Source: CBDBIG01 sp965205845 [NCBI: bacterium]
GTDB taxonomy: Bacteria; SAR324
Length of the DNA stretch: 64,000 bases
Assembly: GCA_965205845.1 (NCBI GenBank)
Contig: CBDBIG010000003.1
Location: 372,001-436,000, forward strand
Direction: 5' to 3'
Of the stretch, positions 10,976 to 63,908 are shown one piece after another. The notes beneath the pieces are model-generated. The model worked only from the letters and a program-made list of their open reading frames with translations. It did no database searches and had not been told where the DNA came from. The position numbers and the translations under genes are program-made. Each line of letters starts with the position of its first letter. Within the stretch, counting starts at the first letter, position 1.

Positions 10976-12031
10976 ATGAGCGTCGTCGTGCACCCAGGGA
11001 AAACCACCGCTACCTCCACCAGCCAATCCGTACCATTAAGCCTGCAAAACCTGCATGTCGACCAATTGACTAAGGCCATTTTGGCGGGCAATCGTGCCAT
11101 GCTCGCCCGCGCCATCACACTGATTGAAAGCATAAATCCAGACCACGAAAGCAAGGCGCAAGCGTTGTTACAACACATGATACCCCATGCAGGAAAAGCC
11201 ATCCGCCTGGGAATTACAGGCCCCCCGGGAGTGGGAAAAAGCACTTTTTTAGAAACCCTTGGTTGCCAGCTTACCCAAGCGGGCAAGTACATTGCTGTTT
11301 TGGCGATTGACCCCAGCAGCAAGCGCACCAAAGGGAGCATTTTGGGGGACAAAACCCGCATGAATCGCCTTGCCCAACAAGAGCATGCGTTTATCCGCCC
11401 TTCCCCTTCGGGCGGACGTTTGGGTGGGGTTGCCAGTGCCACCCGAGAGACCATGCTGCTCTGCGAAGCCGCTGGTTTTGACATTATTTTTGTTGAAACC
11501 GTGGGCGCGGGTCAAAATGAGACCCAAGTGGCAGAAATGGTAGACTGCTTCATGGTGCTCGCTTTGCCTGGGGCTGGCGATGAACTACAGGGCATTAAAA
11601 AAGGGGTGCTCGAACAAGCCGATTTTATTGTGGTTAATAAAGCCGATGGCGCCAATGCCAAACTGGCCATGAACACCGCTTGCGATTGTAAAAATGCCTT
11701 GCGTTTCCTCACCCCTTTGGAGGCATGTTGGAAGCCAAGGGTGTTATTGTGCAGCAGCCTAAAGCAAACGGGTATTCAAGAGCTTTGGCAACAAGTGCTT
11801 GAGCATCGCCAGGTGATGGAAGCGGCAGGTGCTTTGCAAACAAGGCGTGCCCAACAGCAGATACGTTGGATGTGGAATTTGCTCGAAGCACGCCTGGCCA
11901 GGCAAGTCCAAACCAAGCTCGCCAACAACAAAACCCTTGGTAGCATTGAAAAGGCCGTGGCAAATGGGCAGTGTTCACCGAGCCACGCTGCAGAAAAACT
12001 GTGGCGCTTGTGCGGGCTTCCCGGTGCTTAA
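10976..12031 (+). CDS. meaB: MeaB/ArgK-family GTPase (methylmalonyl-CoA mutase chaperone)
   Basis: A G3E-family P-loop GTPase that protects and reloads B12-dependent methylmalonyl-CoA mutase. The Walker A is GPPGVGKST (about residues 81-89); downstream are the family-specific LAIDPSSKRTKGSILGDKTR, the switch segment VETVGAGQNET and the guanine-specificity motif NKAD. The C-terminal helix (residues about 270-350) corresponds to the dimerisation arm. The mutase itself is not in this window. Unusually, the last 13 codons plus the stop are part of a perfect 74-bp tandem duplication (11993-12140). Confidence 0.93.
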   Translation: MSVVVHPGKTTATSTSQSVPLSLQNLHVDQLTKAILAGNRAMLARAITLIESINPDHESKAQALLQHMIPHAGKAIRLGITGPPGVGKSTFLETLGCQLTQAGKYIAVLAIDPSSKRTKGSILGDKTRMNRLAQQEHAFIRPSPSGGRLGGVASATRETMLLCEAAGFDIIFVETVGAGQNETQVAEMVDCFMVLALPGAGDELQGIKKGVLEQADFIVVNKADGANAKLAMNTACDCKNALRFLTPLEACWKPRVLLCSSLKQTGIQELWQQVLEHRQVMEAAGALQTRRAQQQIRWMWNLLEARLARQVQTKLANNKTLGSIEKAVANGQCSPSHAAEKLWRLCGLPGA

Positions 12032-12140
12032 AATGAGTTTTTTCAAAGCAAACTACCAACCCTGTGGAAAAACTGTGGCGCTTGTGCGGGCTTCCCGGTG
12101 CTTAAAATGAGTTTTTTCAAAGCAAACTACCAACCCTGTG
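11993..12140. repeat. Perfect 74-bp tandem duplication across the meaB stop codon
   Basis: Copy 1 (11993-12066) and copy 2 (12067-12140) look identical base for base. The unit contains the end of meaB, its TAA stop and the first 35 bases of downstream sequence, so a second, untranslated gene end follows the first. Confidence 0.95.
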
Positions 12141-12253
12141 GAAAAACCATCATGGTTCCCCTCATTTGGCCACCACACCCCGAATAATTTATACAAGGCT
12201 TAAGGGGGGGTGCTCCCTCCCCAAACCCTTGCATCCCAAAGACGATAAGCCTC

Positions 12254-29124: not shown

Positions 29125-29760
29125 AACGAAAAACGCGCAAACCCGCATGCCACCGTTTTTTGGGCGGGACACGTGGGACTCGGTTTTGGGGCTGCCGCCT
29201 GTGTCAAAAAACCCTGTGAATCCCGCTATATCCCGCTATATCCCGCTATATCCCGCTATATCCCGCTATTTTCTAGTGGTGGCAAAGCATGTGAATGGGC
29301 ACACGGAGCAAAAATTTACGGCTCGGTTTTGGGGCTGCCGCCTGTGTCAAAAAACCCTGTGAATCCCGCTATATCCCGCTATATCCCGCTATATCCCGCT
29401 ATATCCCGCTATTTTCTAGTGGTGGCAAAGCATGTGAATGGGCACACGGAGCAAAAATTTACGGCTCGGTTTTGGGGCTGCCGCCTGTGTCAAAAAACCC
29501 TGTGAATCCCGCTATATCCCGCTATATCCCGCTATTTTCTAGTGGTGGCAAAGCATGGGGACGGGCACACCAAAAACGCGCAAACCCGCATACCACCGTT
29601 TTTAGGGCGGGACACGCGCGACTCGGTTTTGGGGCTGCTGCCTGTGTCAAAAAACCCTGTAAATCCCGCTTAATCCCGCTTAATCCCGCTTAATCCCGCT
29701 TAATCCCGCTTAATCCCGCTATTTTCTAGTGGTGGCAAAGCATGTGAATGGGCACATTGG
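29125..29760. repeat. Nested tandem array: 143-157 bp units containing 10-bp repeats
   Basis: Long units start at 29181, 29324, 29467 and 29624 (cggttttggggctgc). Inside each unit is a run of a 10-bp sub-repeat, tatatcccgc (three to five copies), changed to ttaatcccgc in the last unit. Each ends with gtggtggcaaagcatgtgaa. Open frames across it (translating to ISRYIPLYPA-type repeats) are by-products of the repeat. Diverged relatives occur at 34380-34775 and 40506-40663. Confidence 0.92.
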
Positions 29761-32509: not shown

Positions 32510-32611
32510 GTGTTTTTGCTGCAATGGTGCACCCCCCCCATAAACAAGCTGTTCTTTTGGCCCAACGCCTCCACTGAGCACCAAAAACAAGGCTTTTTTG
32601 TAAACAAACCC

Positions 32612-33595
32612 ATGACAGAGAGTGAGATTATTCTACACAGCATGGCACCTTGCTTGCTGTTATCTTTGGTGTTACGCACCCCTTGGCAAAAGCTAAAAGC
32701 AATCCAAGGCTACGCACCATGGCTGTTTGCTGGTGCCAGCCTGCCAGCCTTGGCTGCCTTCGTGCAACATGTTTTTGCGGCAGATAGAATCGCTTTTTTG
32801 CTGCGCTCACCAGGGTTGTATGCCCCCGCGTATGCCTTATTGGTCATTGGCACCCTTGGCTTTTTGGTGGGCTGTTGGCGGACCCCCACAGATGGATGGC
32901 TTAGAACCAGAGCCATGTTGTTAGGGTATGCACTGCATATGGGTTTGCTGTATTTTACCAGCAGTGGTGTCGCCTTGCTATACCCTTGGAATGAGCAGTA
33001 CATGTCCTTTGCACTGCTGCCTGTGGGCATGCCTGCTTTGAATATGTGGCTCTTGTTAATATGGCTCTTGGTCTGCTGCCTGCCGACCACCAGGCGTTAT
33101 TTGGCACCCTTTGGTTGGGGCATGGCAGTGTTATGGATTGGTCTATGCGTCTTTCAAAAAGGGGTGGTGATTCGGGATATTCGCGCCCAGTTAAAACTGC
33201 CCGTAGGTCAGGAGAGAGTTCGCCTGTTTACTCAGCCAAAAGATAGCCTTCCTTGGCGTTGGGCTGTGGTGGTCGAACACCTTGATTTAAACACAGTCGA
33301 AATTTGGGAGCACGCGATAAGTCGGCAGCAGCCCTTAAAATTGCACCAGGTAGCCCATTGGCGCAACCTTACAAAATTAAGCTCTTTCTTGCACACTCCC
33401 GTTGCGTTGCGCGCTTTAACGCGCCTCTTCCAAAACCCCATTGGCGAGGCGGTGATAAAAAATGAGCGATGGGTGGTGGTATTGCAAGAGGCTGCAAGCA
33501 TTCATCAGGTGTCTCCACGGCGCTTTACTATGGAAATTCAGCCCGCAGCCTATGGCACTGTTACGCGTCATTTTTCCGTTCAAGGCTTTGATTAA
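32612..33595 (+). CDS. Multi-pass membrane protein resembling YdjM-type hydrolases (PF04307), metal site apparently lost
   Basis: A 327-aa protein with four or five N-terminal membrane segments and a soluble C-terminus. The stretch LGYALHMGLLYFTSSGVALL followed by YPWNEQYMSFALLPVG parallels the family pattern (gylsHllLDlltpyGvqllwPf...); the C-terminal PKDSLPWRWAVVVEHLDL parallels its lPWRvvv segment. The usual H..LD metal-binding pair is H..LL here, so hydrolase activity is doubtful. The assignment is by pattern only. The ATG is at 32612. The final 22 codons and stop are duplicated immediately downstream. Confidence 0.5.
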   Translation: MTESEIILHSMAPCLLLSLVLRTPWQKLKAIQGYAPWLFAGASLPALAAFVQHVFAADRIAFLLRSPGLYAPAYALLVIGTLGFLVGCWRTPTDGWLRTRAMLLGYALHMGLLYFTSSGVALLYPWNEQYMSFALLPVGMPALNMWLLLIWLLVCCLPTTRRYLAPFGWGMAVLWIGLCVFQKGVVIRDIRAQLKLPVGQERVRLFTQPKDSLPWRWAVVVEHLDLNTVEIWEHAISRQQPLKLHQVAHWRNLTKLSSFLHTPVALRALTRLFQNPIGEAVIKNERWVVVLQEAASIHQVSPRRFTMEIQPAAYGTVTRHFSVQGFD

Positions 33596-33679
33596 CCGCT
33601 ACCCATGGAAATTGAGATCGCAGCCTATGGCACTGTTACGCGTCATTTTTCCGTTCAAGGCTTTGATTAACTGCATTTT
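33530..33679. repeat. 75-bp tandem duplication across a stop codon
   Basis: Copies 33530-33604 and 33605-33679 differ at only a few positions near the left end. Each contains the C-terminal codons (MEI..AAYGTVTRHFSVQGFD) and TAA stop of the YdjM-like gene. The unit is exactly 25 codons, so the second copy remains in the same frame behind the stop. Confidence 0.93.
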
Positions 33680-34307: not shown

Positions 34308-34379
34308 AAACCCCCTTTGCCCGAGTTGGCATGAAGGTTTGATCTTCCCTTGCAAACTTATGGGCTTTGCCATTGCCCC

Positions 34380-34780
34380 CGTCCCCATGCTTTGCGACCA
34401 CATGGAAATAACGGGATGTAGCGGGATTTCTGACACAGCTACACCCCAAAAAGATGGCATGTGCCCGTTCACATGCTTTGCGACCACATTTTCCCCGTTC
34501 ACATGCTTTGCGACCACATGGAAATAACGGGATGTAGCGGGATTTCTGACACAGCTACACCCCAAAAAGATGGCATGTGCCCGTTCACATGCTTTGCGAC
34601 CACATGGAAATAACGGGATGTAGCGAGTGTGCCCGTCCCCATGCTTATGCGACCACATTTTCCCCGTTCACATGCTTATGCGACCACATGGAAATAACGG
34701 GATGTAGCGGGATTTCTGACACAGCTACACCCCAAAAAGATGGCATGTGCCCGTTCACATGCTTTGCGACTCGTAATTTA
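34380..34780. repeat. Tandem array related to the 29-kb repeats
   Basis: Four copies of a unit starting catggaaataacgggatgta (34401, 34517, 34603, 34687; one truncated) interleaved with gtgcccgttcacatgctttg and cgaccacattttccccg segments. On the minus strand this reads as a relative of the 29.2-29.75 kb array (caaagcatgtgaacgggcac ... tgtgtcagaaatcccgct). Open frames across it are by-products. It directly precedes MuA remnant 2. Confidence 0.88.
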
Positions 34781-37825: not shown

Positions 37826-38014
37826 GGGTGTTGCCCCCTCGTTTTTGGTTTTGGCTTCCTTGGCTTTTTTGGCTCCTTGCACGCTAAAGTTGGGGTCGGT
37901 CTCAAGGGCTGCTAAAGCCTCCTTGCTTAAGCCTTCCTCGACACGGGTCTCGCCTTGTGGCCATTGCCTGCCAGCACGCCACATGGGGTGCTGGGCGATG
38001 ATGGTTATCGTCAT
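37760..38014 (-). pseudogene. FluMu-type small head/tail protein (HI1506-like), fused into the sheath frame
   Basis: MTITIIAQHPMWRAGRQWPQ followed by GETRVEEGLSKEALAALETD and PNFSVQ matches the small Mu-like prophage protein found between the major head protein and the sheath (pattern: I.a....fRRaGr.w......lt..qlaaL..Dp.L.V). No stop separates it from the sheath start, so the frame reads through into MSIFFEQIPTG. Its ATG and upstream DNA are duplicated together with the end of gpT. Confidence 0.6.
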
Positions 38015-38474
38015 GGTTTTTTTACCCCTTTTAAGCCAGCCAAGATGAAACCAAGAGCTCTGCTGTGCCCCGCCAGACGTTGGTGGCGCCAGCCATGTTT
38101 CTCTCGGCGTTTAGTATCTCTAGGGCCGCCTCTCTGTGTGCGGGTGGCACCACCAGCATCGTGGGCTTTACGCCCAGGGGCCGCCCGCGGTTTTTCATGC
38201 TCTCCAACGCTGCAAAGGCGGCTTTGTAGTTGTCGGATGATGGTTATCGTCATGGTTTTTTTACCCCTTTTAAGCCAGCCAAGATGAAACCAAGAGCTCT
38301 GCTGTGCCCCGCCAGACGTTGGTGGCGCCAGCCATGTTTCTCTCGGCGTTTAGTATCTCTAGGGCCGCCTCTCTGTGTGCGGGTGGCACCACCAGCATCG
38401 TGGGCTTTACGCCCAGGGGCCGCCCGCGGTTTTTCATGCTCTCCAACGCTGCAAAGGCGGCTTTGTAGTTGTCG
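37997..38474. repeat. 239-bp tandem duplication spanning the gpT 3' end
   Basis: Copies 37997-38235 and 38236-38474 appear identical. Each includes the last ~70 codons of the gpT gene, its stop, and the Shine-Dalgarno and first codons (MTITII) of the following FluMu-type gene, so the phage gene junction exists twice. Confidence 0.94.
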
Positions 38475-39160
38475 GTGGTAAGGCTTTGTTTGCTGCCGTA
38501 GGCCAGCTGCCACAAGCCAAAGCCGACATTGTCGCGGCACTCCACACCGTAAAGGTAGACGTTGCGCATAAACACATTGTCATCCTCGGAGCGGTCTTTG
38601 CGCACAAGCAGCCCCTTTTTGCGCTCTTGAAAGATAATCGGCTTAATCATGCGGCTGGTGTCGAGCAAAAACCACGGGCTACCACTGCCTCCACCGCTAT
38701 TGGATGCCGTGGTGGTGCTACCGTCTTTGTTTTCAATGGGGTGGTCGGTGTCAAAGAAATACTGCCCATCGTAGCAAGGGCTTTTAAAACCTTTCTTGAG
38801 CAAGCCAAAGACCAACTCGTTTTTGTGTGCCATCAGCGAGCGCCCCATCTCGGTAAAGAGTGGGGTATACACCCCAACTTGGTCGTCTTCAATGTCTGTG
38901 CGATTGACCGAGACGCTGTCTTCCCAGAGCTTGTTTTTGATGCGGTAGTCGTGGCTGGCCATGCTCGAAATGATGCGATCTCCCAGCCACAAATTCATCC
39001 CTTTGATGCTGCCCAACCATGCATAGTGATTTTCTGCCGTGCTTGAAGCAACCGGCATCGCTACCTTTTGCCAGTCGTCACCCGCCATCCCAAAGCCTTG
39101 ATTAAAGGCTGCGCTGTACCCAACAAATAAGTCGTCTAGGCTTTGTCTGTTGATGATCAT
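38270..39160 (-). CDS. Mu-like prophage major head subunit gpT (intact frame)
   Basis: A 296-aa frame with the full gpT pattern: MIINRQSLDDLFVGYSAAFN, VASSTAENHYAWLGSIKGMN then LWLGDRIISSMASHDYRIKN, SVNRTDIEDDQVGVYTPLFT, CYDGQYFFDTDHPIENKDGS and the C-terminal LVVPPAHREAALEILNAERN ending NVWRGTAELLVSSWLA. gpT is the capsid protein of Mu-type phages. It is the only undamaged phage gene I can see here; its 3' quarter is duplicated downstream. Confidence 0.88.
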   Translation of the reverse strand: MIINRQSLDDLFVGYSAAFNQGFGMAGDDWQKVAMPVASSTAENHYAWLGSIKGMNLWLGDRIISSMASHDYRIKNKLWEDSVSVNRTDIEDDQVGVYTPLFTEMGRSLMAHKNELVFGLLKKGFKSPCYDGQYFFDTDHPIENKDGSTTTASNSGGGSGSPWFLLDTSRMIKPIIFQERKKGLLVRKDRSEDDNVFMRNVYLYGVECRDNVGFGLWQLAYGSKQSLTTDNYKAAFAALESMKNRGRPLGVKPTMLVVPPAHREAALEILNAERNMAGATNVWRGTAELLVSSWLA

Positions 39161-40420: not shown

Positions 40421-40505
40421 AAGCACCCAAATCACGCTCGGGTCTGTGCGAATGGCGATATCCATCCCCACATAGCAAGCACCGTGAGCATACAAGGCGG
40501 GCACA

Positions 40506-40663
40506 CCCGCTATATCCCACTTATTTCAATGTGGTGGCATAAGCATGGGGACGGGAACACCCGCTATATCCCGCTTATTTCAATGTGGTGGCATAAGCAT
40601 GGGGACGGGAACACCCGCTATATCCCGCTTATTTCAATGTGGTGGCATAAGCATGGGGACGGG
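40506..40663. repeat. Three tandem 54-bp repeats after the FAD/Fe-S dehydrogenase gene
   Basis: Copies start at 40506, 40560 and 40614 (cccgctatatccc); each includes cttatttcaatgtggtggca followed by taagcatggggacggg. The unit is a relative of the 29-kb and 34-kb arrays and closes the prophage-derived segment. It ends 11 bp before the stop codon of the next gene. Confidence 0.93.
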
Positions 40664-40673
40664 GGCTATTGCA

Positions 40674-43601
40674 TTAGGCCAATGCTTGCAGATCATTTCC
40701 GCGAACAGCACAGGCCAATACCTCAATTAAATGTGTGGCTTTGCGGGGCGAAAAATGCGCAATTTGCTGGCGGCAAGACATCCCGTCTGCCACGATGATA
40801 TCGTTCGGTTTCGCCTTTTGGACGGCTGGGCCAAGGCGCTGCTGGTAAATGGTTTTTGAGATTTCATAATGCTCTTTTTCATAACCAAAAGAGCCCGCCA
40901 TGCCACAACAACCTGCATTGATGGTTTCTACTTTTGCCCCAGGGATGGCACGCAATACCGCTACGGTTGGAGCCACACCAATAAGGGATTTTTGGTGGCA
41001 ATGCCCGTGCAACAGCATGCGTACATTGCTGGGCCCTGTAGGAAATGTTAACGATCCCGCCTTCACCAATTGGTATAAAAACTCATCAACCGTCATGCAT
41101 TGTTTGGCGACGGTCTGGGAATCTTCACCCGGTAACAGGTCGGGGTAGTCCTCCTTAAGGGTTAACAAGCAAGAGGGCTCAACCCCCAAAATAGGAATGC
41201 CTTTCTTGGCATAAGGGAGCAACCCTTGCACATTAAAACGGGCGTTGCCTCGGCCTTCTTCAAGCAAGCCCTTAGAGATCATCGGGCGCGCACAGCATTT
41301 TTTAGCAGGCAATACAACCTCATAGCCACAGTACTCCAGCACCTCGATCGCTGCACGCCCCAACGAAGGGGTGTTGTACTCCATAAAAGTATCGTGAAAC
41401 AACACCACCTGCGGGCGTTTTTGTTTCGGTGCCATTGCCCCATTTAAAGGCTTTGCTTCTGCCCTGATGCGCACAGCACGTGCGTGGAACCAATGGCTAA
41501 AAGTTTGGCTCGCAAAACTGGGCAGTTTGCGTTTTGGTGCAATTCCCATCAGTTGCTTGCCAAATCCACTAAAGGGGAGGTTTAGCAGCAGGTTTGAAAC
41601 GGGTGCAGCCCAGCTACCCCAGTGATTGATGCTCTCAATCGCACCAAACAAACGGCTACGCAAAGGCACCCCGTGGCGCTTATGATAGTGGTACAAAAAT
41701 TCATACTTAAACTTGGCCATGTCCACTTTAGAAGGACACTCGGTTTTGCAGCCTTTACATTCAAGGCACAGATCCATTACCTCATACATGTCATGGCTGG
41801 TCAGGTATTCGGGAGGTAAATCGCCTTGAAGCACGCCCTTGAGTGCATTGGAGCGCCCACGGGTCGAGTGCCTGTCATCGCGAGTGGCTTGATAAGAAGG
41901 GCACATTACCCCGGCATCCAATTTACGGCATTGGCCATTGCCGTTGCACATTTCAAGGGCAAAAGAAAACCCGCCATCTTTGGAAAAATCTTGGTTTATG
42001 GGCGGGGTGTGAACAATTTCTTTACCCCAACGCAGGTTCTCCAGTGGATCTTGGGGGACCACAATGTTACCCGGGTTAAGCAAATTTTGCGGATCAAACA
42101 CGCTCTTTACCTCACGGAACGCTTGATACAATTGCTTACCAAACAGTTTTTCAATGGTCCAGCTGCGTACACGACCATCCCCGTGCTCGCCGGTAATCGT
42201 GCCCCCGTATTTGTCGACCAATTCCACAACTTCCTCAAAAATGCTGCGTAACTTTACTTTGTCGGCAGGTTTTTTAAGGTTCAAAAAAGGGCGAATATGC
42301 AAACAGCCCACCGAGGTATGGCCGTAATAGCCCGCCGTCACCCCGTGCTTTTTGACCACAGCATCAAACTCTTTGACGTAGTCTGCCAAGCGCAAAGGGT
42401 CAACAGCCGAATCTTCCACAAAAGGCAGAGGCTTTTCATCAATTCGTCGTCCCATCAACAAGCCCAAACCCGCTTTGCGCAAGTTCCACACCTTGGTTTG
42501 TTCCTCTTGACTAAGGGCTTTAACATAGGCATATCCTTGTTTATCCTTTCGCATCTCGCGAGCAAGACGACCCACCTTATCGGCTACCTCTTTGGGACTA
42601 TCCCCGTAAAACTCTACAATAACAATCGCTCCAGGGTGGCCTTCTAAAAAATCAACCTGCCCTGCAAGGGCGGGGGAAACGCGCGCCTCGTCGATGATTG
42701 TATCATCGACAAGTTCCATGGCAGAGGGCTTATGGGACAAAATGAGGCTGTCAGCCTCCACCGCAGCAATTTTATCTTTGAAATGGGCTATCAGCAACGC
42801 TTTGTGCTTAGGCAACTTCACAATGCGTACCTTAAGCGCACGTATCATGGCCAAGGTGCCCTCAGAGCCCACCATGAAGCGGGCAAAATTGACCCCGTCG
42901 GGCTTCAGCAATTCATCCAAATTATAACCAGACACCCGCCGATCAATTTTGGGGAAATGCTTTTCAACCTCGCTTTTTTGGTCGGTAGCAATGCGCATCA
43001 ACTCGCGGTGAATGCGACCATCAAGGCTATTTTCTCGCCCACGCACGGCCAAAGCACTGTCGTCCATGTCACCAAACTGTGTCAACGAGCCATCCGCCAA
43101 GAGTGCTTTGATTTGTAGTACATGGTCTACGGTTTTACCGTAAATAATCGATCGCGCCCCACACGAATTATTGCCCGCCATCCCCCCAATGGTAGCGCGA
43201 TTGCTGGTGGAGGTATCAGGCCCAAAGCCATAGCCTAAAGGGGCAAGGTGCCCATTGAGTTGGTCCTGCACCACGCCTGGTTGTACCCAAGCCCATTCTT
43301 CGTCTGTGTTGACCTCTAAAACATGGTTCATATGGCGCGAGCAGTCGAGGATAATGGCATCGTTCACCGACTGTCCTGCGAGGGCGGTCCCGCCACCACG
43401 CGGCAACACAGGAATGCCGTGATCGCGTCCAATTTCCATCACGCCCTGCATATCTGCCTCGTCGCGCGGAAACACGACAGCCCTGGGTTGCACTTGGTAC
43501 ATGCTGGCATCGGTGCTATATATTTGGCGAGTCACAGCATCAAAATGCACTGCCCCTTTAAGGTTTTTTTCCAGAGCAACCTGCCAATCGTTTTTCTTCA
43601 T
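40674..43601 (-). CDS. Fused FAD-linked oxidase / Fe-S oxidoreductase (YdiJ- or D-lactate-dehydrogenase-like)
   Basis: A 975-aa fusion of a GlcD-like FAD domain with a GlcF-like Fe-S domain. The FAD part contains VLPRGGGTALAGQSVNDAII and NRATIGGMAGNNSCGARSII, plus GYYGHTSVGCLHIRPFLNL and TITGEHGDGRVRS. The Fe-S part has CNGNGQCRKLDAGVMCPSY and CLECKGCKTECPSKVD (4Fe-4S) and the CCG-type motif NAGCCGMAGSFGYE. Such proteins oxidise 2-hydroxyacids (D-lactate, D-2-hydroxyglutarate, glycolate) and pass electrons to the quinone pool. The ATG at 43601 has AGGGGA upstream. The neighbouring thiolase lies 462 bp away, so no operon is implied. Confidence 0.9.
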   Translation of the reverse strand: MKKNDWQVALEKNLKGAVHFDAVTRQIYSTDASMYQVQPRAVVFPRDEADMQGVMEIGRDHGIPVLPRGGGTALAGQSVNDAIILDCSRHMNHVLEVNTDEEWAWVQPGVVQDQLNGHLAPLGYGFGPDTSTSNRATIGGMAGNNSCGARSIIYGKTVDHVLQIKALLADGSLTQFGDMDDSALAVRGRENSLDGRIHRELMRIATDQKSEVEKHFPKIDRRVSGYNLDELLKPDGVNFARFMVGSEGTLAMIRALKVRIVKLPKHKALLIAHFKDKIAAVEADSLILSHKPSAMELVDDTIIDEARVSPALAGQVDFLEGHPGAIVIVEFYGDSPKEVADKVGRLAREMRKDKQGYAYVKALSQEEQTKVWNLRKAGLGLLMGRRIDEKPLPFVEDSAVDPLRLADYVKEFDAVVKKHGVTAGYYGHTSVGCLHIRPFLNLKKPADKVKLRSIFEEVVELVDKYGGTITGEHGDGRVRSWTIEKLFGKQLYQAFREVKSVFDPQNLLNPGNIVVPQDPLENLRWGKEIVHTPPINQDFSKDGGFSFALEMCNGNGQCRKLDAGVMCPSYQATRDDRHSTRGRSNALKGVLQGDLPPEYLTSHDMYEVMDLCLECKGCKTECPSKVDMAKFKYEFLYHYHKRHGVPLRSRLFGAIESINHWGSWAAPVSNLLLNLPFSGFGKQLMGIAPKRKLPSFASQTFSHWFHARAVRIRAEAKPLNGAMAPKQKRPQVVLFHDTFMEYNTPSLGRAAIEVLEYCGYEVVLPAKKCCARPMISKGLLEEGRGNARFNVQGLLPYAKKGIPILGVEPSCLLTLKEDYPDLLPGEDSQTVAKQCMTVDEFLYQLVKAGSLTFPTGPSNVRMLLHGHCHQKSLIGVAPTVAVLRAIPGAKVETINAGCCGMAGSFGYEKEHYEISKTIYQQRLGPAVQKAKPNDIIVADGMSCRQQIAHFSPRKATHLIEVLACAVRGNDLQALA

Positions 43602-43959
43602 TGTGTTTCCCCTGATAATCGTTGCTATGCCCCGCATGTACGTATCCCGTTAATCACCTAGAACGCAGCATAAAGAAACACGCTGCACACCACCCACCCT
43701 CGACTACCATTTTTTTCTGAGTGTGCACAAGCAAAACCTCGAACGCGCTCAAAATCTCCGCGCGCAACACCCACCGCTTATCCCCGTTTAGCACCCACAT
43801 GAACCGCGTTCAACCACACCTTACAGTTCCTCGAGCAAGCCAACCAGCACGCCGTTCCAACTACCAAGCCCCCCTGCTGGCACAAGGGTTTTGCAGCATA
43901 GGGTTTTGCGAAGGGGGTTATTTTTGCGTTGGACATCGTTTAAAATAACCTCCCCCACT
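43602..43959. other. Intergenic region upstream of the dehydrogenase gene
   Basis: No credible gene. It should contain the promoter of the dehydrogenase gene (leftward), and its right edge meets the duplicated thiolase terminus. Confidence 0.5.
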
Positions 43960-44123
43960 TAAGTGGCACTTAGCCAAAAACTAAGCCACCCTTTCAATCA
44001 CGGCTGCCACACCCATACCACCACCAATGCATAGGGTAATCTAAGTGGCACTTAGCCAAAAACTAAGCCACCCTTTCAATCACGGCTGCCACACCCATAC
44101 CACCACCAATGCATAGGGTAATC
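43960..44123. repeat. Perfect 82-bp tandem duplication across the thiolase stop codon
   Basis: Copies 43960-44041 and 44042-44123 look identical. Each holds the last ~20 codons of the thiolase gene, the TAG stop and a palindrome-rich tail (taagtggcactta; cttag...ctaag). Confidence 0.95.
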
Positions 44124-45310
44124 AGGGCCGTGCTTTTGTCGCTGCGTTCCATTTCATCGACAGCAGTCCCTACAAGCATCGCCCCTGTAGCCCCAATGGG
44201 ATGCCCCAGGGCAATGGCACCACCATTCACATTCACGCGGGCCGAGTCAATTTCTAAGTCATGCATGGTTTTCATGGGCACGCAAGCAAAGGCCTCGTTA
44301 ATTTCCCACAAGTCGATATCTTTGGCTTGCATGCCTGCCTTGCGTAAGGCTAGGCGGCTGGCAGGCGTGGGTGCTGTAAGCATAATAAATGGCTCCGAGC
44401 CCACTTGCGCAACAGAGCGTACTTTGGCGCGCGGTTTAAGGCCTTGGGCCTTGGCGTAAGAATCACTGGCTACCAAAATGGCGGCGGCGCCATCAACAAT
44501 GCCACTCGAGTTGCCGGCGTGATGCACATGGTTTACCCGCTCAATTTCGGGGTAGAGTTGCTTGGCCAATCCATCATAACTTTTGCCATTGTTGGGAGAA
44601 TCGGCACCTAGCTTTTCAAAACTGGGATTTAAACCCGCCAAGCTCGCCATTGAGGTATCCGGGCGGGGGAACTCATCTTGGGAAAGCAGTACCTTCCCTG
44701 CTTGGTTTTTAACGGGAACAAGGCTTTGTTGAAAGCGCTTTTCTTGAATGGCTACCCCAGCTTTACGCTGACTTTCAACAGCAAAAGCATCAAGGTCATC
44801 GCGGCTAAAGCCTTCAAGGGTCGCAATCAGGTCTGCACTAATCCCCTGGGGCGCCATGGGTTGGACTTTAAGCAATTGGGGGTTGTTGCCTGCCAAACCC
44901 GCCCCATCAGACCAAAGCGGTTGCCTTGACATCGACTCCACACCACCACCCACCACCAAGTTTTGCATGCCCGAGAGCACCCCCATGGTGGCAAAGTTAA
45001 ACGCTTGCAGACCTGAGCCACAAAAGCGGTTTAGCGTAACCCCCGGGGTTTGATGGGGCCAACCTGCGAGCAAAGTGGCCATGCGGGCAATGTCTGCACC
45101 TTGATCCCCTGCCTGGCTGACACAGCCTGCAACCACATCTTCCACATCTTGTGTGGGAAACGGGTTGCGCTGCGCCAAGGCACGTAAGCAAGTGGCCAAC
45201 AATTCTTGTGGATGCACCGTACTTAGCGCACCCCCTGGTTTGCCATTGGCAGCCTTGCGCCCTTTGCCACGTGGTGTACGTACTGCATCAATAATCCATG
45301 CCTGTGTCAT
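44063..45310 (-). CDS. Acetyl-CoA C-acyltransferase (thiolase)
   Basis: A 415-aa thiolase, catalysing reversible acyl transfer in fatty acid degradation or acetoacetyl-CoA formation. The nucleophile Cys97 lies in [14 protein letters not shown], the conserved [11 protein letters not shown] supplies the active-site His, and the C-terminal [14 protein letters not shown] carries the second Cys. ATG at 45310 ([20 protein letters not shown]); the frame extends upstream to 45391 without support. The similarity pattern is of the FadA type acting on longer or branched substrates, but substrate length cannot be fixed. The C-terminus is part of an 82-bp duplication. Confidence 0.93.
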
Positions 45311-45563
45311 GCTTGATTTCTCCTTAAAAACGTATATCTTGTAACCAAGAACGGGAATATACCACCTTATTGACTCATAGGAGCCTAGCATAAAAGACTG
45401 TTCAAATAGTCACTGATCCGCTCACATTTTGCCAAGGCATTTTTTTAATCCATGATAGGATGAGCGTTTAACGATTAGGATAATTGTCGTAATTGTCCGC
45501 ATAATATGCGTGCGGCGTTATGTGTTCTACCCACCTTTTTTACACGCAAAAACCGATTAGTCC

Positions 45564-48521
45564 ATGAGAACATTGCACGTTAAAACCCTCGGCGGTGAAT
45601 ACCCCATCGTGATTGGGCGCAATATTTTAGAAGCGACCTTACCCAAAGCCGTGTTGCGCAGTGGGGGTGAAATGGTGGTGGTAATTACCAATACCACCCT
45701 CGAAACCCTGCACTTACAGCGCTTGTTGCTGGCATTACAAAACATTCCTTTGCGCGTGGAATGGCTAAGCGTACCCGATGGCGAACAGCATAAAACCTTA
45801 ACCCAGCTGGAACGCATACATGATCATCTCATGAAATTGCAGGCCAACCGCCGTACAACTTTGGTGGCCTTTGGTGGCGGCGTGGTTGGCGACATAACAG
45901 GGCTGACCGCCGCCACCTACATGCGTGGTATCCCTTATATTCAAGTCCCCACCACCTTGCTCTCTTTTGTGGATAGCAGCATTGGAGGGAAAACCGCGGT
46001 GAACCACCCACGTGGTAAAAACAGTATCGGCGCCTTTAAACAACCCAATTCCGTGGTGACGGAATTGGAATTTCTCAACACCCTGCCCAAGCGTGAACTA
46101 CGTGCAGGTTTGTTTGAACTGATAAAACATGGCATTATTCGCGACCTTGATTTATTTGACTTTATCGCCTGCCAGGAAGGAGACGTATTCGACGCGCAAG
46201 CAGCTTTTTGGGAGGAGGCTGTTACGCGCTCGTGCATGGTAAAACGCGACTTGGTCCAAAAAGATGAACGCGAACAAGGGGTGCGTTCCTTGCTCAATTT
46301 TGGGCATAGCTTGGCGCATTTGCTTGAAACCCATACCGAGTATCGAGGGTGTTTGCATGGTGAGGCGGTAGGCATTGGGATGATGTTCGCCGCCTTTGCT
46401 TCTCATAAAAAATGGGGTTTGTCTAAAACAGACTGGAAAAAAATGAAGCAAATCCTCACCCCTTGGCTTATGCCCATTGACACCCCCCCTTTATCCCGTG
46501 AACAGTTTGCGGATCTGCTCTCTCATGATAAAAAAAACACCGCCAAAGGCCTTAATTTCATTGCGCTCACGCACCTGGGTCAAGCGGTGGCGCGTCCCAC
46601 CACCCAAATTATCGATCTGTGGCCGTGTTTTCAGGACTTTGTACAACAACATCCCCAGCTATTGCCTGGAATTGCCAACCACAGCCCCAACAATCCCTCC
46701 CCACTACCGCCCGTAGGTGTGGCAAGGATGCCATTTCCCCAATCCGCTTCTCTGTCACCTGCTGTGCTGGCGGGTAACACAACGGCTACAGCCTTACCCA
46801 ACAAGTTCCCCACCACCCATACAAAGCAAGGGCTTTCAACCAACAATGCCCTCATTTTTTTAAACCACCTTGCCTTATATTGGAAAGATTTTGCCAAGGC
46901 ATGGGATACCTTGCTGCCTTTTGCCCAGCAAGCGGCTGCCAAGTCCAAAAATGTACTGCAAACGCGTATTCACCACGCCTTGGTCAAGCAACTCCCTGCG
47001 TGGTTTGGTTTGCCCAGCGGCCCCGGAGCACATTATCGCGAATGGGGCACGTTGCATGCCCTTGAGGACATGTTAAACCCAGGGTATTTTTCAGCAGAAA
47101 GTGTCGAAAAAACCTTGCCCAATACGCTCCAAGGGGGGACACGCCAAAAAGCCACCGAAATCCTATGTGATTGGTTGCGTTTGCGCGATCAGGGCATCCC
47201 CAAAGCCTTTCCGTTTTCTTCTTTGCAAGCGGAGGAAGTGTTGGATTGGGTATTGCTTATGCCCAGGGAGACCTGGGACGAGCATTGGGTAGAGCATCTC
47301 AATGCCCTAGAAGCCTGTGGTTTTGCGGGGCCTTCTAGTGCCAGTATTCAAGCATGGATGCGCTTTGAGGCAGGAAGTTTTAACAGCCCCCCCAACGCGG
47401 TGCAGCTTCAAGCATGGCAAGAAGCCACCTGGCATTTTAACGCCCCATCAAAAACCTTTGAAACACCCAGCCTGGCTGCTGTTGAACCGACTGATAGCAG
47501 CAAGAACATAAGCACCCTTACCCATGCCAGTGCAACCCAAGCCGACGGTTACTTTATTGCGACCCAGACAGCACCTACCACCTTTGCTCACCCAAACCCA
47601 GGCGCCACGGCAAGCAACCCAGAAATTCCCAGCCAAACCCTCCCCACCGCAGTGCTCTCGGCCATGGCCAATTTGGTTAGCGCAGCCTTTGCAGGGCGCT
47701 TTAGCGTGTTGGACATTGAAGGCCCTTGCAGCGAACTCCCGGTTTGTAAACGTTGCCCTTTTGGGCTTGCCCAGCAACAGCAAAACATCAACCCCCTATG
47801 CGCTTGGGCTGACAAAAACACAAAAACCACCCGCCACCAAAGCGATTTTAGCGCCACAGAGGCCCAGGCATGGCTAGGGCAGCAAAGCAATTTTACAAAT
47901 CTTCCCGATTCCTTGTTATTACAAGTCGCCTTTAACCTTAGTGCCCAAGAAAAAGAACGCCTTGAGCAAGCTATGTTTCACGATGATTTAAGCAGCATCG
48001 CCCAATTGCCTCCCGAGAGCATTGCGAATTGGGCGCATAAGCACGGCCTTCCTGCAGAAGCACTCCAAGCGTTTTTTACCTTGCTAATCCGGCTTAAAAG
48101 CAAGTCCTTGCGTCCAGGGTCTAAAATGTCGACCGCACAAGATGTATTTGACCACTGCGGACCGCACATGAGCAGCTTAAAGCAAGAGCGCTTGTTGCTG
48201 ATAATGCTCGATGCCAACAAATGCTTTTTGGGCGAACGTCTGATTAGCCAAGGGCTCATTGATGGGGTCTTTTTTCACCCTCGCGATGTTTTCTCTCCCG
48301 CCATTTTGCAAGGAGCGCACTCCGTTATTCTCGTACACAATCATCCCTCAGGCAATCCTACACCTTCACAAGCAGATATTACGCTCACGAAATCCCTCTA
48401 CAAAGCTTCCATTTTGCTGCAAATTCCCCTAATTGACCATATCGTGATTGGGGGCGATACTTATGTAAGTATGCTAGAGACACAATGGGTTGCTGATAAC
48501 AGCAACTTTGGGGTAGAGTGA
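45564..48521 (+). CDS. aroB: AroB-RadC fusion: 3-dehydroquinate synthase with a C-terminal RadC/JAB domain and a cysteine-bearing middle region
   Basis: A single uninterrupted 985-aa frame. Residues 1-365 are a complete 3-dehydroquinate synthase (shikimate pathway): FGGGVVGDITGLTAATYMRG, the metal ligands in LFELIKHG, LNFGHSLAHLLE and LHGEAVGIGM. Residues about 860-985 are a RadC-type JAB domain: HPRDVFSPAIL, HNHPSGNPTPSQAD (H925, H927, S935, D938; the usual PREVF Glu is Asp) and IPLIDHIVIGGDTYVSMLE. The 490-residue middle includes GGTRQKATEILCDWLRLRD and a cysteine cluster C722-x5-C728-x2-C731-x14-C746, faintly like the HhH and Fe-S loop of endonuclease III-type glycosylases. The usual partner aroK is not upstream. 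I know of no standard AroB-RadC fusion. Confidence 0.88.
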   Translation: MRTLHVKTLGGEYPIVIGRNILEATLPKAVLRSGGEMVVVITNTTLETLHLQRLLLALQNIPLRVEWLSVPDGEQHKTLTQLERIHDHLMKLQANRRTTLVAFGGGVVGDITGLTAATYMRGIPYIQVPTTLLSFVDSSIGGKTAVNHPRGKNSIGAFKQPNSVVTELEFLNTLPKRELRAGLFELIKHGIIRDLDLFDFIACQEGDVFDAQAAFWEEAVTRSCMVKRDLVQKDEREQGVRSLLNFGHSLAHLLETHTEYRGCLHGEAVGIGMMFAAFASHKKWGLSKTDWKKMKQILTPWLMPIDTPPLSREQFADLLSHDKKNTAKGLNFIALTHLGQAVARPTTQIIDLWPCFQDFVQQHPQLLPGIANHSPNNPSPLPPVGVARMPFPQSASLSPAVLAGNTTATALPNKFPTTHTKQGLSTNNALIFLNHLALYWKDFAKAWDTLLPFAQQAAAKSKNVLQTRIHHALVKQLPAWFGLPSGPGAHYREWGTLHALEDMLNPGYFSAESVEKTLPNTLQGGTRQKATEILCDWLRLRDQGIPKAFPFSSLQAEEVLDWVLLMPRETWDEHWVEHLNALEACGFAGPSSASIQAWMRFEAGSFNSPPNAVQLQAWQEATWHFNAPSKTFETPSLAAVEPTDSSKNISTLTHASATQADGYFIATQTAPTTFAHPNPGATASNPEIPSQTLPTAVLSAMANLVSAAFAGRFSVLDIEGPCSELPVCKRCPFGLAQQQQNINPLCAWADKNTKTTRHQSDFSATEAQAWLGQQSNFTNLPDSLLLQVAFNLSAQEKERLEQAMFHDDLSSIAQLPPESIANWAHKHGLPAEALQAFFTLLIRLKSKSLRPGSKMSTAQDVFDHCGPHMSSLKQERLLLIMLDANKCFLGERLISQGLIDGVFFHPRDVFSPAILQGAHSVILVHNHPSGNPTPSQADITLTKSLYKASILLQIPLIDHIVIGGDTYVSMLETQWVADNSNFGVE

Positions 48522-48664: not shown

Positions 48665-48814
48665 GTGAAAATCTCTAAAAAAAGCCCTACAAAACGGCGC
48701 AATGCTGCCAAAAAAACCAAATTTCGTAACCGTCGTCTGCGTGCTACTGGGGTCGCGCGTGTGGCCTACAGGCGCAAACGCCGCATGCAACGCCGTAAGC
48801 AAGCACGCGGCTGA
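48665..48814 (+). CDS. Very basic 49-residue protein, unknown
   Basis: From the GTG at 48665 the frame encodes KISKKSPTKRRNAAKKTKFR then NRRLRATGVARVAYRRKRRM and QRRKQARG: 14 Arg, 9 Lys and no acidic residue in 49. GAGG lies eight bases upstream. The GTG overlaps the TGA of a short upstream frame (ATGATGATGACAATG..., ending CCGTGA), a GTGA coupling arrangement. It has the flavour of a small ribosomal or nucleic-acid-binding protein but does not match L34, L36 or Thx by eye. It follows the aroB-radC gene by 143 bp. Confidence 0.55.
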   Translation: MKISKKSPTKRRNAAKKTKFRNRRLRATGVARVAYRRKRRMQRRKQARG

Positions 48815-55352: not shown

Positions 55353-55396
55353 GGTCGAAAAACTCCTTTTCTGAGGAATCCATTAAAATCTAGGCA

Positions 55397-55545
55397 ACTC
55401 AATCTGCCGTGCTGGCGCCTTTTCGCAGCGTTTTTGCAGCGGCCACTCAATCTGCCGCGTTGGCGTCTTTTCGCAGCGTTTTTGCGAGGCCACTCAATCT
55501 GCCGCGTTGGCGTCTTTTCGCAGCGTTTTTGCAGCGGCTTGAATG
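55397..55545. repeat. Three tandem 47-48 bp copies across the 2Fe-2S gene stop codon
   Basis: actcaatctgcc starts at 55397, 55445 and 55492. The rightmost copy encodes the true C-terminus (KTLRKDANAAD, TGA); the two left copies are downstream duplicates with small changes. Confidence 0.94.
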
Positions 55546-63655: not shown

Positions 63656-63744
63656 CAGGGCGGGGCAAGGGACTCCGAAGCCATGATGCAATGGAATACC
63701 TTTTTTTTAAAAAAAGTGTATTACACTTTGCGTATCCTGCCATT

Positions 63745-63908
63745 TCTCAAGTGGCCCTTTAGAGTAGAAAGTTGCGGTTTGCCCTTGTAAGGACTGCGGT
63801 TTTGTTACGGGGTTCCCGCTATCTCTTCTCAAGTGGCCCTTTAGAGTAGAAAGTTGCGGTTTGCCCTTGTAAGGACTGCGGTTTTGTTACGGGGTTCCCG
63901 CTATCTCT
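63745..63908. repeat. 92-bp tandem duplication
   Basis: Copies start at 63745 and 63837 with tctcaagtggccctttagag and share gttgcggtttgcccttgtaa; the second ends at about 63908. No gene end is recognised here, unlike the other duplications. Confidence 0.94.

What the first reader, a model, noticed from the sequence alone, without database searches (positions are those of the whole stretch)
45564..48521. AroB-RadC fusion with a cysteine-cluster middle region
One 985-codon frame joins a complete shikimate-pathway enzyme (all AroB metal ligands present) to a complete RadC-type JAB domain (HNHPSG...SQAD) through 490 residues containing a KA-rich helix-hairpin-like stretch and C722-x5-C-x2-C-x14-C. 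The N-terminal HhH domain normal for RadC is not obvious; the middle region may replace it with something endonuclease III-like. Joining central metabolism to a DNA-repair/competence-type domain has no obvious rationale, so either a processed polyprotein or a new bifunctional regulator is possible. I know of no described AroB-RadC enzyme, but could not search.
Basis: partly seen in the sequence, partly recalled or inferred. Interest (0 to 1): 0.85.

Follow-up and report, generated by a model that had tools for sequence, protein, structure and literature searches.

The report
One-off AroB-orphan-RadC fusion protein
A single bacterial gene joins an intact amino-acid-pathway enzyme (AroB) to an intact RadC-type metal-dependent hydrolase domain through about 420 residues with no known relatives; it reads as one real gene and is an unseen combination, but only one copy is known and what the joining is for remains a guess.

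Summary
Window 45564-48521 (+) is one uninterrupted 985-codon frame: AroB (residues 1-359, catalytic residues kept), an unknown middle (360-775) and a RadC-type JAB domain (856-973, JAMM residues kept). Codon usage favours this frame throughout, weakly only in the first linker (360-428). The middle is linker, predicted helical stretch (429-626), second linker, then four cysteines (C722-x5-C-x2-C-x14-C). It has no significant Pfam, PHROG or PDB-sequence match, none in phage or plasmid records, and only chance-level stretches in 576 genomes of three class samples. The endonuclease III idea found no support: the helical part scores like shuffled sequence; only the Cys loop faintly resembles HhH-GPD iron-sulphur loops. 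The host is unplaced: GltB points to Magnetococcia (18 of the 20 best matches), CarB and AroB do not. In 48 genomes of that class aroB and radC are separate, and none of the 108 aroB loci held carries radC. So this is a so far single fusion of two known families around an orphan module. Best reading: two working domains on one chain, AroB perhaps a dimeric carrier. With one copy and no reads, an indel artefact joining two genes cannot be excluded, though codon statistics in the join lean against it.

The parts
45564..46640 (+). AroB (3-dehydroquinate synthase) domain, residues 1-359
   Evidence: TIGR01357 above cut-off; Pfam PF01761 and PF24621; PDB 5eks 262.6 bits; conserved active-site residues
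46641..46847 (+). Linker 1, residues 360-428, rich in P/S/T/N/G, no acidic residue in 360-425
   Evidence: composition; weak but best forward codon score; in-frame ATG at 46728 has no well-spaced Shine-Dalgarno
46848..47441 (+). Orphan helical module B, residues 429-626
   Evidence: coding codon usage; AlphaFold single-sequence model all helical, mean pLDDT 53.5; no family or convincing homologue
47442..47639 (+). Linker 2, residues 627-692, rich in P/S/T/N/G, without helix or strand in the model
47640..47828 (+). Helix plus four-cysteine stretch C722-x5-C728-x2-C731-x14-C746 (residues 693-755), possible metal site
   Evidence: 5.7-bit match of the isolated segment to the third HhH-GPD paralogue's Cys loop
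47889..48128 (+). Position of the RadC N-terminal helical (HhH) domain, residues 776-855, highly diverged
   Evidence: NF000642 alignment starts at 780; 5.8 bits to a mixed RadC N-terminal profile, 5 of 1000 shuffles as high; -1.2 bits to the Magnetococcia profile, 487 of 1000
48129..48482 (+). RadC-like JAB domain, residues 856-973, JAMM residues E875, H925, H927, S935, D938
   Evidence: PF04002 125.1 bits; PDB 2qlc; conservation in 88 RadC ORFs

Best explanation
A real gene fusion confined, as far as seen, to one bacterial lineage. Shown: one frame carries a complete AroB, an orphan middle of about 416 residues and a complete RadC JAB domain. Inferred: the AroB part makes 3-dehydroquinate as usual and, as DHQ synthases are dimers (recalled), would carry two copies of the tail. 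The RadC part keeps its metal site and does whatever chromosomal RadC does, which the literature leaves open (nucleic-acid processing or a JAMM-like peptidase). The two linkers let the modules act independently. The helical and Cys4 modules may have taken over the contact role of the lost or diverged RadC HhH domain. No metabolic link between the halves is needed or shown.
For: Both end domains keep their catalytic residues, so both seem under selection. Frame-0 coding signal through the middle. The gene stands alone: the upstream neighbour (thiolase, 44063-45391) is divergent and the next candidate downstream is a 49-codon ORF at 48665; a 117-codon ORF in another forward frame (47524-47877) lies where the other frames score lower. 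RadC domains occur in other fusions: RadC-like DinG (PMC11981726, passages) and polyvalent proteins of conjugative elements (PMC5512222, passages). AroB-shikimate kinase fusions have their own NCBIfam models.
Against: Single copy, no genome for the window, no reads. In 48 Magnetococcia genomes no match spans both domains, and none of the 108 aroB loci held has a radC (1.5 Mb in all, several cut short), so no neighbour pair explains the fusion. No relative shows that the middle is conserved. Linker 1 has only a weak coding signal. The role given to the middle is a guess.
Confidence: 0.55

Rival explanations
1. Two adjacent genes, aroB and an orphan-RadC gene, appear joined because of a sequencing or assembly indel near the end of aroB. 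One such layout is concrete: the +1 frame has a TAG at 46714, followed by a frame-0 ATG at 46728.
For: In 11 Magnetococcia loci the AroB ORF ends 13-26 residues after the match, which would put an end near residue 360-370 here; the join region is rich in C runs (46653, 46685, 46699, 46737, 46808); linker 1 has the weakest coding signal; stop and start would lie 11 bases apart; the window holds perfect tandem duplications, which can be assembly products.
Against: Frame 0 is the best forward frame both before and after 46728, and the +1 frame needed by this layout scores -5.7 over residues 360-388. The AAGG before the ATG at 46728 touches it, so it is not a spaced ribosome-binding site. No tandem repeat was listed in the ORF.
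Confidence: 0.2
2. A polyprotein: the chain is made whole and cut in the linkers (about 360-428 and 627-692) into AroB, middle and RadC, perhaps by the JAMM-like RadC domain itself.
For: Two long P/S/T/N/G-rich linkers separate the modules; the RadC JAB domain keeps its JAMM residues; a 2025 review finds metalloproteases as structural relatives of RadC-like domains (PMC11981726, passages).
Against: No cleavage motif was looked for or seen; no RadC with shown peptidase activity in the passages I read; PMC5512222 argues for nucleic-acid processing instead (passages).
Confidence: 0.12
3. The middle is a degenerate HhH-GPD (endonuclease III-like) glycosylase with an iron-sulphur loop, so the tail is a DNA-repair fusion.
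For: C-x5-C-x2-CP begins the Cys loop of a third HhH-GPD paralogue found in 40 of 48 Magnetococcia genomes. The isolated Cys segment scores 5.7 bits to it; with that segment shuffled, 0 of 400 reach the score of B plus C. The whole middle scores 1.1 bits, 5 of 500 shuffles as high, the hit lying on the Cys loop. The Cys loop is also the best hhalign hit to Nth, MutY and the third group (p 0.0045-0.019). The middle is all helical in the models.
Against: No HhH-GPD hit at E up to 10. The helical part is no better than shuffles: 36, 164 and 231 of 400 as high with the third, Nth and MutY HMMs; 76 and 79 of 150 by profile alignment. hhalign probabilities stay at 8% or less. The fourth Cys is at x14, not x4-5. 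By eye no catalytic lysine and aspartate line up.
Confidence: 0.08

Closest known systems
3-dehydroquinate synthase AroB (TIGR01357)
   Same: Residues 1-359, full length, catalytic residues kept
   Different: Carries a 626-residue C-terminal extension; known AroB fusions are to shikimate kinase (PRK14021 and PRK13951 models) or in the AROM protein
RadC family protein (PF04002; NF000642; TIGR00608)
   Same: JAB domain with E, HxH, S, D
   Different: Whole-protein scores are below both NCBIfam cut-offs (134.2 against 180; 111.5 against 133.85); N-terminal HhH at best a faint trace; sits at the end of an AroB
RadC-like DinG and RadC-bearing polyvalent proteins
   Same: RadC JAB domain used as a module in a larger protein (PMC11981726, PMC5512222, passages)
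   Different: Partners named there are helicases, HhH or ArdC-N domains, not a biosynthetic enzyme
HhH-GPD endonuclease III-like proteins (PF00730)
   Same: Short Cys loop with C-x5-C-x2-CP start
   Different: No detectable sequence similarity in the helical part; fourth Cys spacing differs

Membership tests
AroB (3-dehydroquinate synthase) | Score above the curated equivalog cut-off | tested here: met
   TIGR01357 350.8 bits, cut-off 305
AroB (3-dehydroquinate synthase) | Metal ligands and catalytic residues | tested here: met
   E185, H248, H265, K143, K152, K188, N245, H252 among invariant columns of seven AroBs; roles recalled
AroB (3-dehydroquinate synthase) | Enzyme activity | not testable with these tools
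   needs an assay
RadC | RadC-like JAB domain above Pfam gathering score | tested here: met
   PF04002 125.1 bits, cut-off 22.1
RadC | JAMM residues E, HxH, S, D | tested here: met
   E875, H925, H927, D938 invariant in 88 of 88 RadC ORFs, S935 in 84 of 88; 80 of the 89 loci were fetched by patterns that include VHNHPSGN, so that stretch is partly selected for
RadC | Whole-protein RadC models (NF000642, TIGR00608) above cut-off | tested here: not met
   134.2 of 180 and 111.5 of 133.85 bits
RadC | N-terminal helix-hairpin-helix domain | tested here: inconclusive
   5.8 bits to a mixed profile (5 of 1000 shuffles as high), -1.2 bits to the Magnetococcia profile (487 of 1000)
HhH-GPD / endonuclease III | PF00730 match | tested here: not met
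   no match at E up to 10 for the middle (HMMER filters drop most weak hits)
HhH-GPD / endonuclease III | HhH-GPD fold | tested here: inconclusive
   models with mean pLDDT 42.9 and 53.5; no fold stands out
HhH-GPD / endonuclease III | Four-cysteine iron-sulphur loop C-x6-C-x2-C-x5-C (recalled) | tested here: inconclusive
   window has C-x5-C-x2-C-x14-C; of five third-paralogue loops printed, three read C-x5-C-x2-C-x4-C and two end in x5

The most novel reading that the evidence does not exclude
A true bifunctional protein in which a dimeric biosynthetic enzyme (AroB) carries a RadC JAMM hydrolase and a new helical plus Cys4 metal-binding module that replaces the RadC HhH domain, so that RadC activity is tied to, or processed from, an enzyme of aromatic biosynthesis.
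Probability: 0.2. Interest if true: 0.65.

Novelty: new variant of a known kind. Interest (0 to 1): 0.38.

Why it matters
RadC is widely distributed (PMC5512222, passages) and still has no agreed function; an unusual fusion partner is the kind of clue that could suggest one. If the fusion is real and stable in its lineage, it gives a well-understood enzyme as a handle on the RadC module, and an orphan helical/Cys4 module to study. If it is a one-off, it is a curiosity: a chance fusion of two housekeeping genes.

Tried and rejected
Endonuclease III-like middle: tested by Pfam, hhalign against Nth, MutY and a third HhH-GPD group, HMMs with shuffles and a profile alignment of my own with shuffles. 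Negative for the helical part; the Cys loop gives a faint match, told in full under the third rival. By eye I saw a pattern like the K-A-x-x-I helix of HhH-GPD proteins; the numbers did not bear it out, so I dropped it. In one search several ORFs of the groups were wrongly picked, so its hhalign results are void; one search repeats them with ORFs chosen by similarity.

Homologues of the middle: genome contigs by pattern with residues 366-985 (none), viral contigs (none), phages and plasmids by tblastn at E up to 0.1 (none), whole genomes (11 of 143 at E up to 1, best 0.0026 with a stop inside; 8 of 48 at E up to 1; 3 of 385 at E up to 0.01). These are short and scattered and I take them as chance. 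One search checked six of the loci: no coherent match, though two short stretches (L207, L210) reach 2.5e-4 and 1.2e-4 in a search of one locus alone. Against all 304 loci held, module B and the linker 2 plus Cys segment gave three hits between 0.005 and 0.05.

Fusion in Magnetococcia: long open frames around aroB (up to 1038 aa) and radC (up to 768 aa) looked like fusions. In the 11 aroB loci read, the ORF ends 13-26 residues after the AroB match, so the extra length lies upstream, not on the radC side; by eye it overlaps a secretin-like gene in L183 and L184. The long radC frame in L192 overlaps, by eye, a helicase gene on the other strand.

Fold searches with low-confidence models list helical repeats and long helices without a significant match; no HhH-GPD protein is among the rows shown. 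I draw nothing from them.

Placing the host: CarB ranks the Magnetococcales genome only ninth of 20, AroB is closer to other genomes, and the GltB tree did not place the window (no supported set; one row, G034, has a branch of 5.4 and was probably read in the wrong frame). Only the GltB ranking points to Magnetococcia.

Papers: RadC, fusion and 3-dehydroquinate synthase, AroB fusion, RadC fusion, aroB, radC and bifunctional: listings only, no title or abstract shown on an AroB-RadC protein. Attaiech 2008 is not held; I know it from reference lists.

Full report
What is there. The frame 45564-48521 on the + strand is open for 985 codons. Residues 1-359 are a complete 3-dehydroquinate synthase: TIGR01357 350.8 bits against a cut-off of 305, best solved relative by sequence 5eks. 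Columns invariant in an alignment with six other AroBs include the metal ligands E185, H248 and H265 and K143, K152, K188, N245 and H252 (roles recalled). Residues 856-973 are a RadC-type JAB domain (PF04002 125.1 bits; PDB 2qlc). Of 89 loci (80 viral contigs, 9 Magnetococcia), 88 gave a RadC ORF; E875, H925, H927 and D938 are invariant in these and S935 is 84 of 88; the window has all five. The viral loci were fetched partly by a pattern over HNHPSGN, so the invariance of that stretch is partly built in.

The middle. Residues 360-428 and 627-692 are linkers: P, S, T, N and G make up 50% of 360-425 and of 627-692. Between them lies a predicted helical stretch, 429-626. After the second linker come a helix and four cysteines, C722-x5-C728-x2-C731-x14-C746; four Cys in 25 residues occurred in 185 of 20,000 shuffles of 366-785. 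The whole middle has no Pfam match; one sub-segment gives E 0.085 to a helicase UBA model at half its cut-off. There is no PDB sequence match at E up to 10, no PHROG better than E 0.36 and no match in phages or plasmids at E up to 0.1. In whole genomes only short, chance-level matches were found: 11 of 143 at E up to 1, 8 of 48 at E up to 1, 3 of 385 at E up to 0.01. AlphaFold without relatives gives mean pLDDT 42.9 for 421-800 and 53.5 for 429-626, all helical; fold searches name nothing convincing.

Is the middle coding in this frame? Codon statistics trained on 16 other ORFs of the window rank frame 0 above the other forward frames in all six segments. Linker 1 is near zero (0.029 per codon) and one reverse frame is higher there (0.118). 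Split at the in-frame ATG 46728, frame 0 still leads among forward frames in both halves. The other forward frames have stops nearby. I take the frame as real and the join as probably real.

The two-gene alternative. In 11 Magnetococcia loci the AroB ORF ends 13-26 residues after the match, which here would mean an end near residue 360-370. A single-base error in the C-rich stretch after 46650 could hide a stop (TAG at 46714 in the +1 frame) ahead of an ATG at 46728. The +1 frame scores poorly there (-5.7), and the AAGG before that ATG is not spaced as a ribosome-binding site. Without reads this stays open; I give it 0.2.

Endonuclease III? Of seven Magnetococcia genomes examined, six carry three HhH-GPD proteins and one carries two. 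A small third paralogue is found in 40 of 48 genomes at E up to 1e-20, and its Cys loop begins C-x5-C-x2-CP, like the window's. For the idea: the isolated Cys segment scores 5.7 bits to that profile, none of 400 versions with that segment shuffled reach the score of B plus Cys segment, and the whole middle is reached by 5 of 500 shuffles, the hit being the Cys loop. Against it: module B alone is reached by 36, 164 and 231 of 400 shuffles with the third, Nth and MutY HMMs. By a profile alignment of my own, 76 and 79 of 150 shuffles reach module B, and 106 and 66 of 150 reach B plus Cys segment, with the third and the joint profile. hhalign probabilities stay at 8% or less. So the reading has no support beyond the Cys loop.

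RadC's own N-terminal domain. The NCBIfam RadC model aligns from residue 780, but a profile of 44 RadC N-terminal regions gives 5.8 bits with 5 of 1000 shuffles as high, and the Magnetococcia profile gives nothing. The domain is lost or diverged almost beyond recognition. Both whole-protein RadC models stay below cut-off.

Relatives. No genome is held for the window. Among 398 genomes of the phylum of G001, 18 of the 20 best GltB matches lie in the class that holds the Magnetococcales genome WMHbinv6 (class membership read from the handles), at 54-56% identity. Other markers do not agree: CarB puts that genome ninth of 20, AroB is 48% identical to G212 but at most 43% within the class, and a GltB tree with one faulty row did not place the window. 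In 48 genomes of that class no match spans AroB and RadC. In a sample of 349 genomes, 326 match at E up to 1e-30 and no listed match runs past residue 395 (not all matches are listed). RadC relatives reach 38% identity in the listed matches of 398 genomes at E up to 1e-20, 41% over about 98 residues in Magnetococcia and 59% over one 58-residue segment in a viral contig. Of 304 loci held, 108 have aroB (1.5 Mb in all, several cut short) and 97 have radC; none has both.

How it may work. I favour two independent working modules on one chain, with the dimeric AroB (recalled) carrying RadC. Which substrate RadC acts on is open: one comparative study argues for nucleic-acid processing (PMC5512222, passages); a 2025 review reports metalloproteases as the related structures and says that RadC-like DinG has not been studied (PMC11981726, passages). 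Everything after 'both domains keep their active sites' is inference.

Verdict. A probably real and, in what I searched, unique architecture of known families around an orphan module: a new variant of a known kind, of moderate interest, held back by a single copy and no homologue of the middle.

Noticed in passing
window 11993-12147, 33530-33671, 37997-38475, 43960-44123, 63744-63908: Tandem duplications of 74-239 bases, about two copies each, 95-100% alike; the first four overlap the 3' end of a listed ORF (10976-12031, 32510-33595, 38270-39160, 44063-45391). Either this lineage duplicates short stretches often or they are assembly overlaps.
   Followed up: no
window 29179-29535, 29662-29720, 34377-34770, 40498-40663, 55393-55538: Further tandem arrays, those near 29 kb and 40.5 kb sharing an ATCCCGCT-like unit.
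   Followed up: no
window 38270-39160 (-): Mu-like prophage major head protein gpT (PF10124, 394 bits); the 239-base duplication at 37997-38475 covers its 3' end.
   Followed up: partly
window 48665-48814 (+): A 49-codon GTG-started ORF of very basic protein just downstream of the fusion, with GAGG eight bases before the start; no Pfam match.
   Followed up: partly
window 40674-43637 (-): FAD oxidase fused to a 4Fe-4S and CCG-domain part (987 aa), beside the thiolase.
   Followed up: no
class of G014 (Magnetococcia), loci L244-L273: A small third HhH-GPD paralogue in 40 of 48 genomes with an iron-sulphur-like Cys loop; its job was not looked into.
   Followed up: partly
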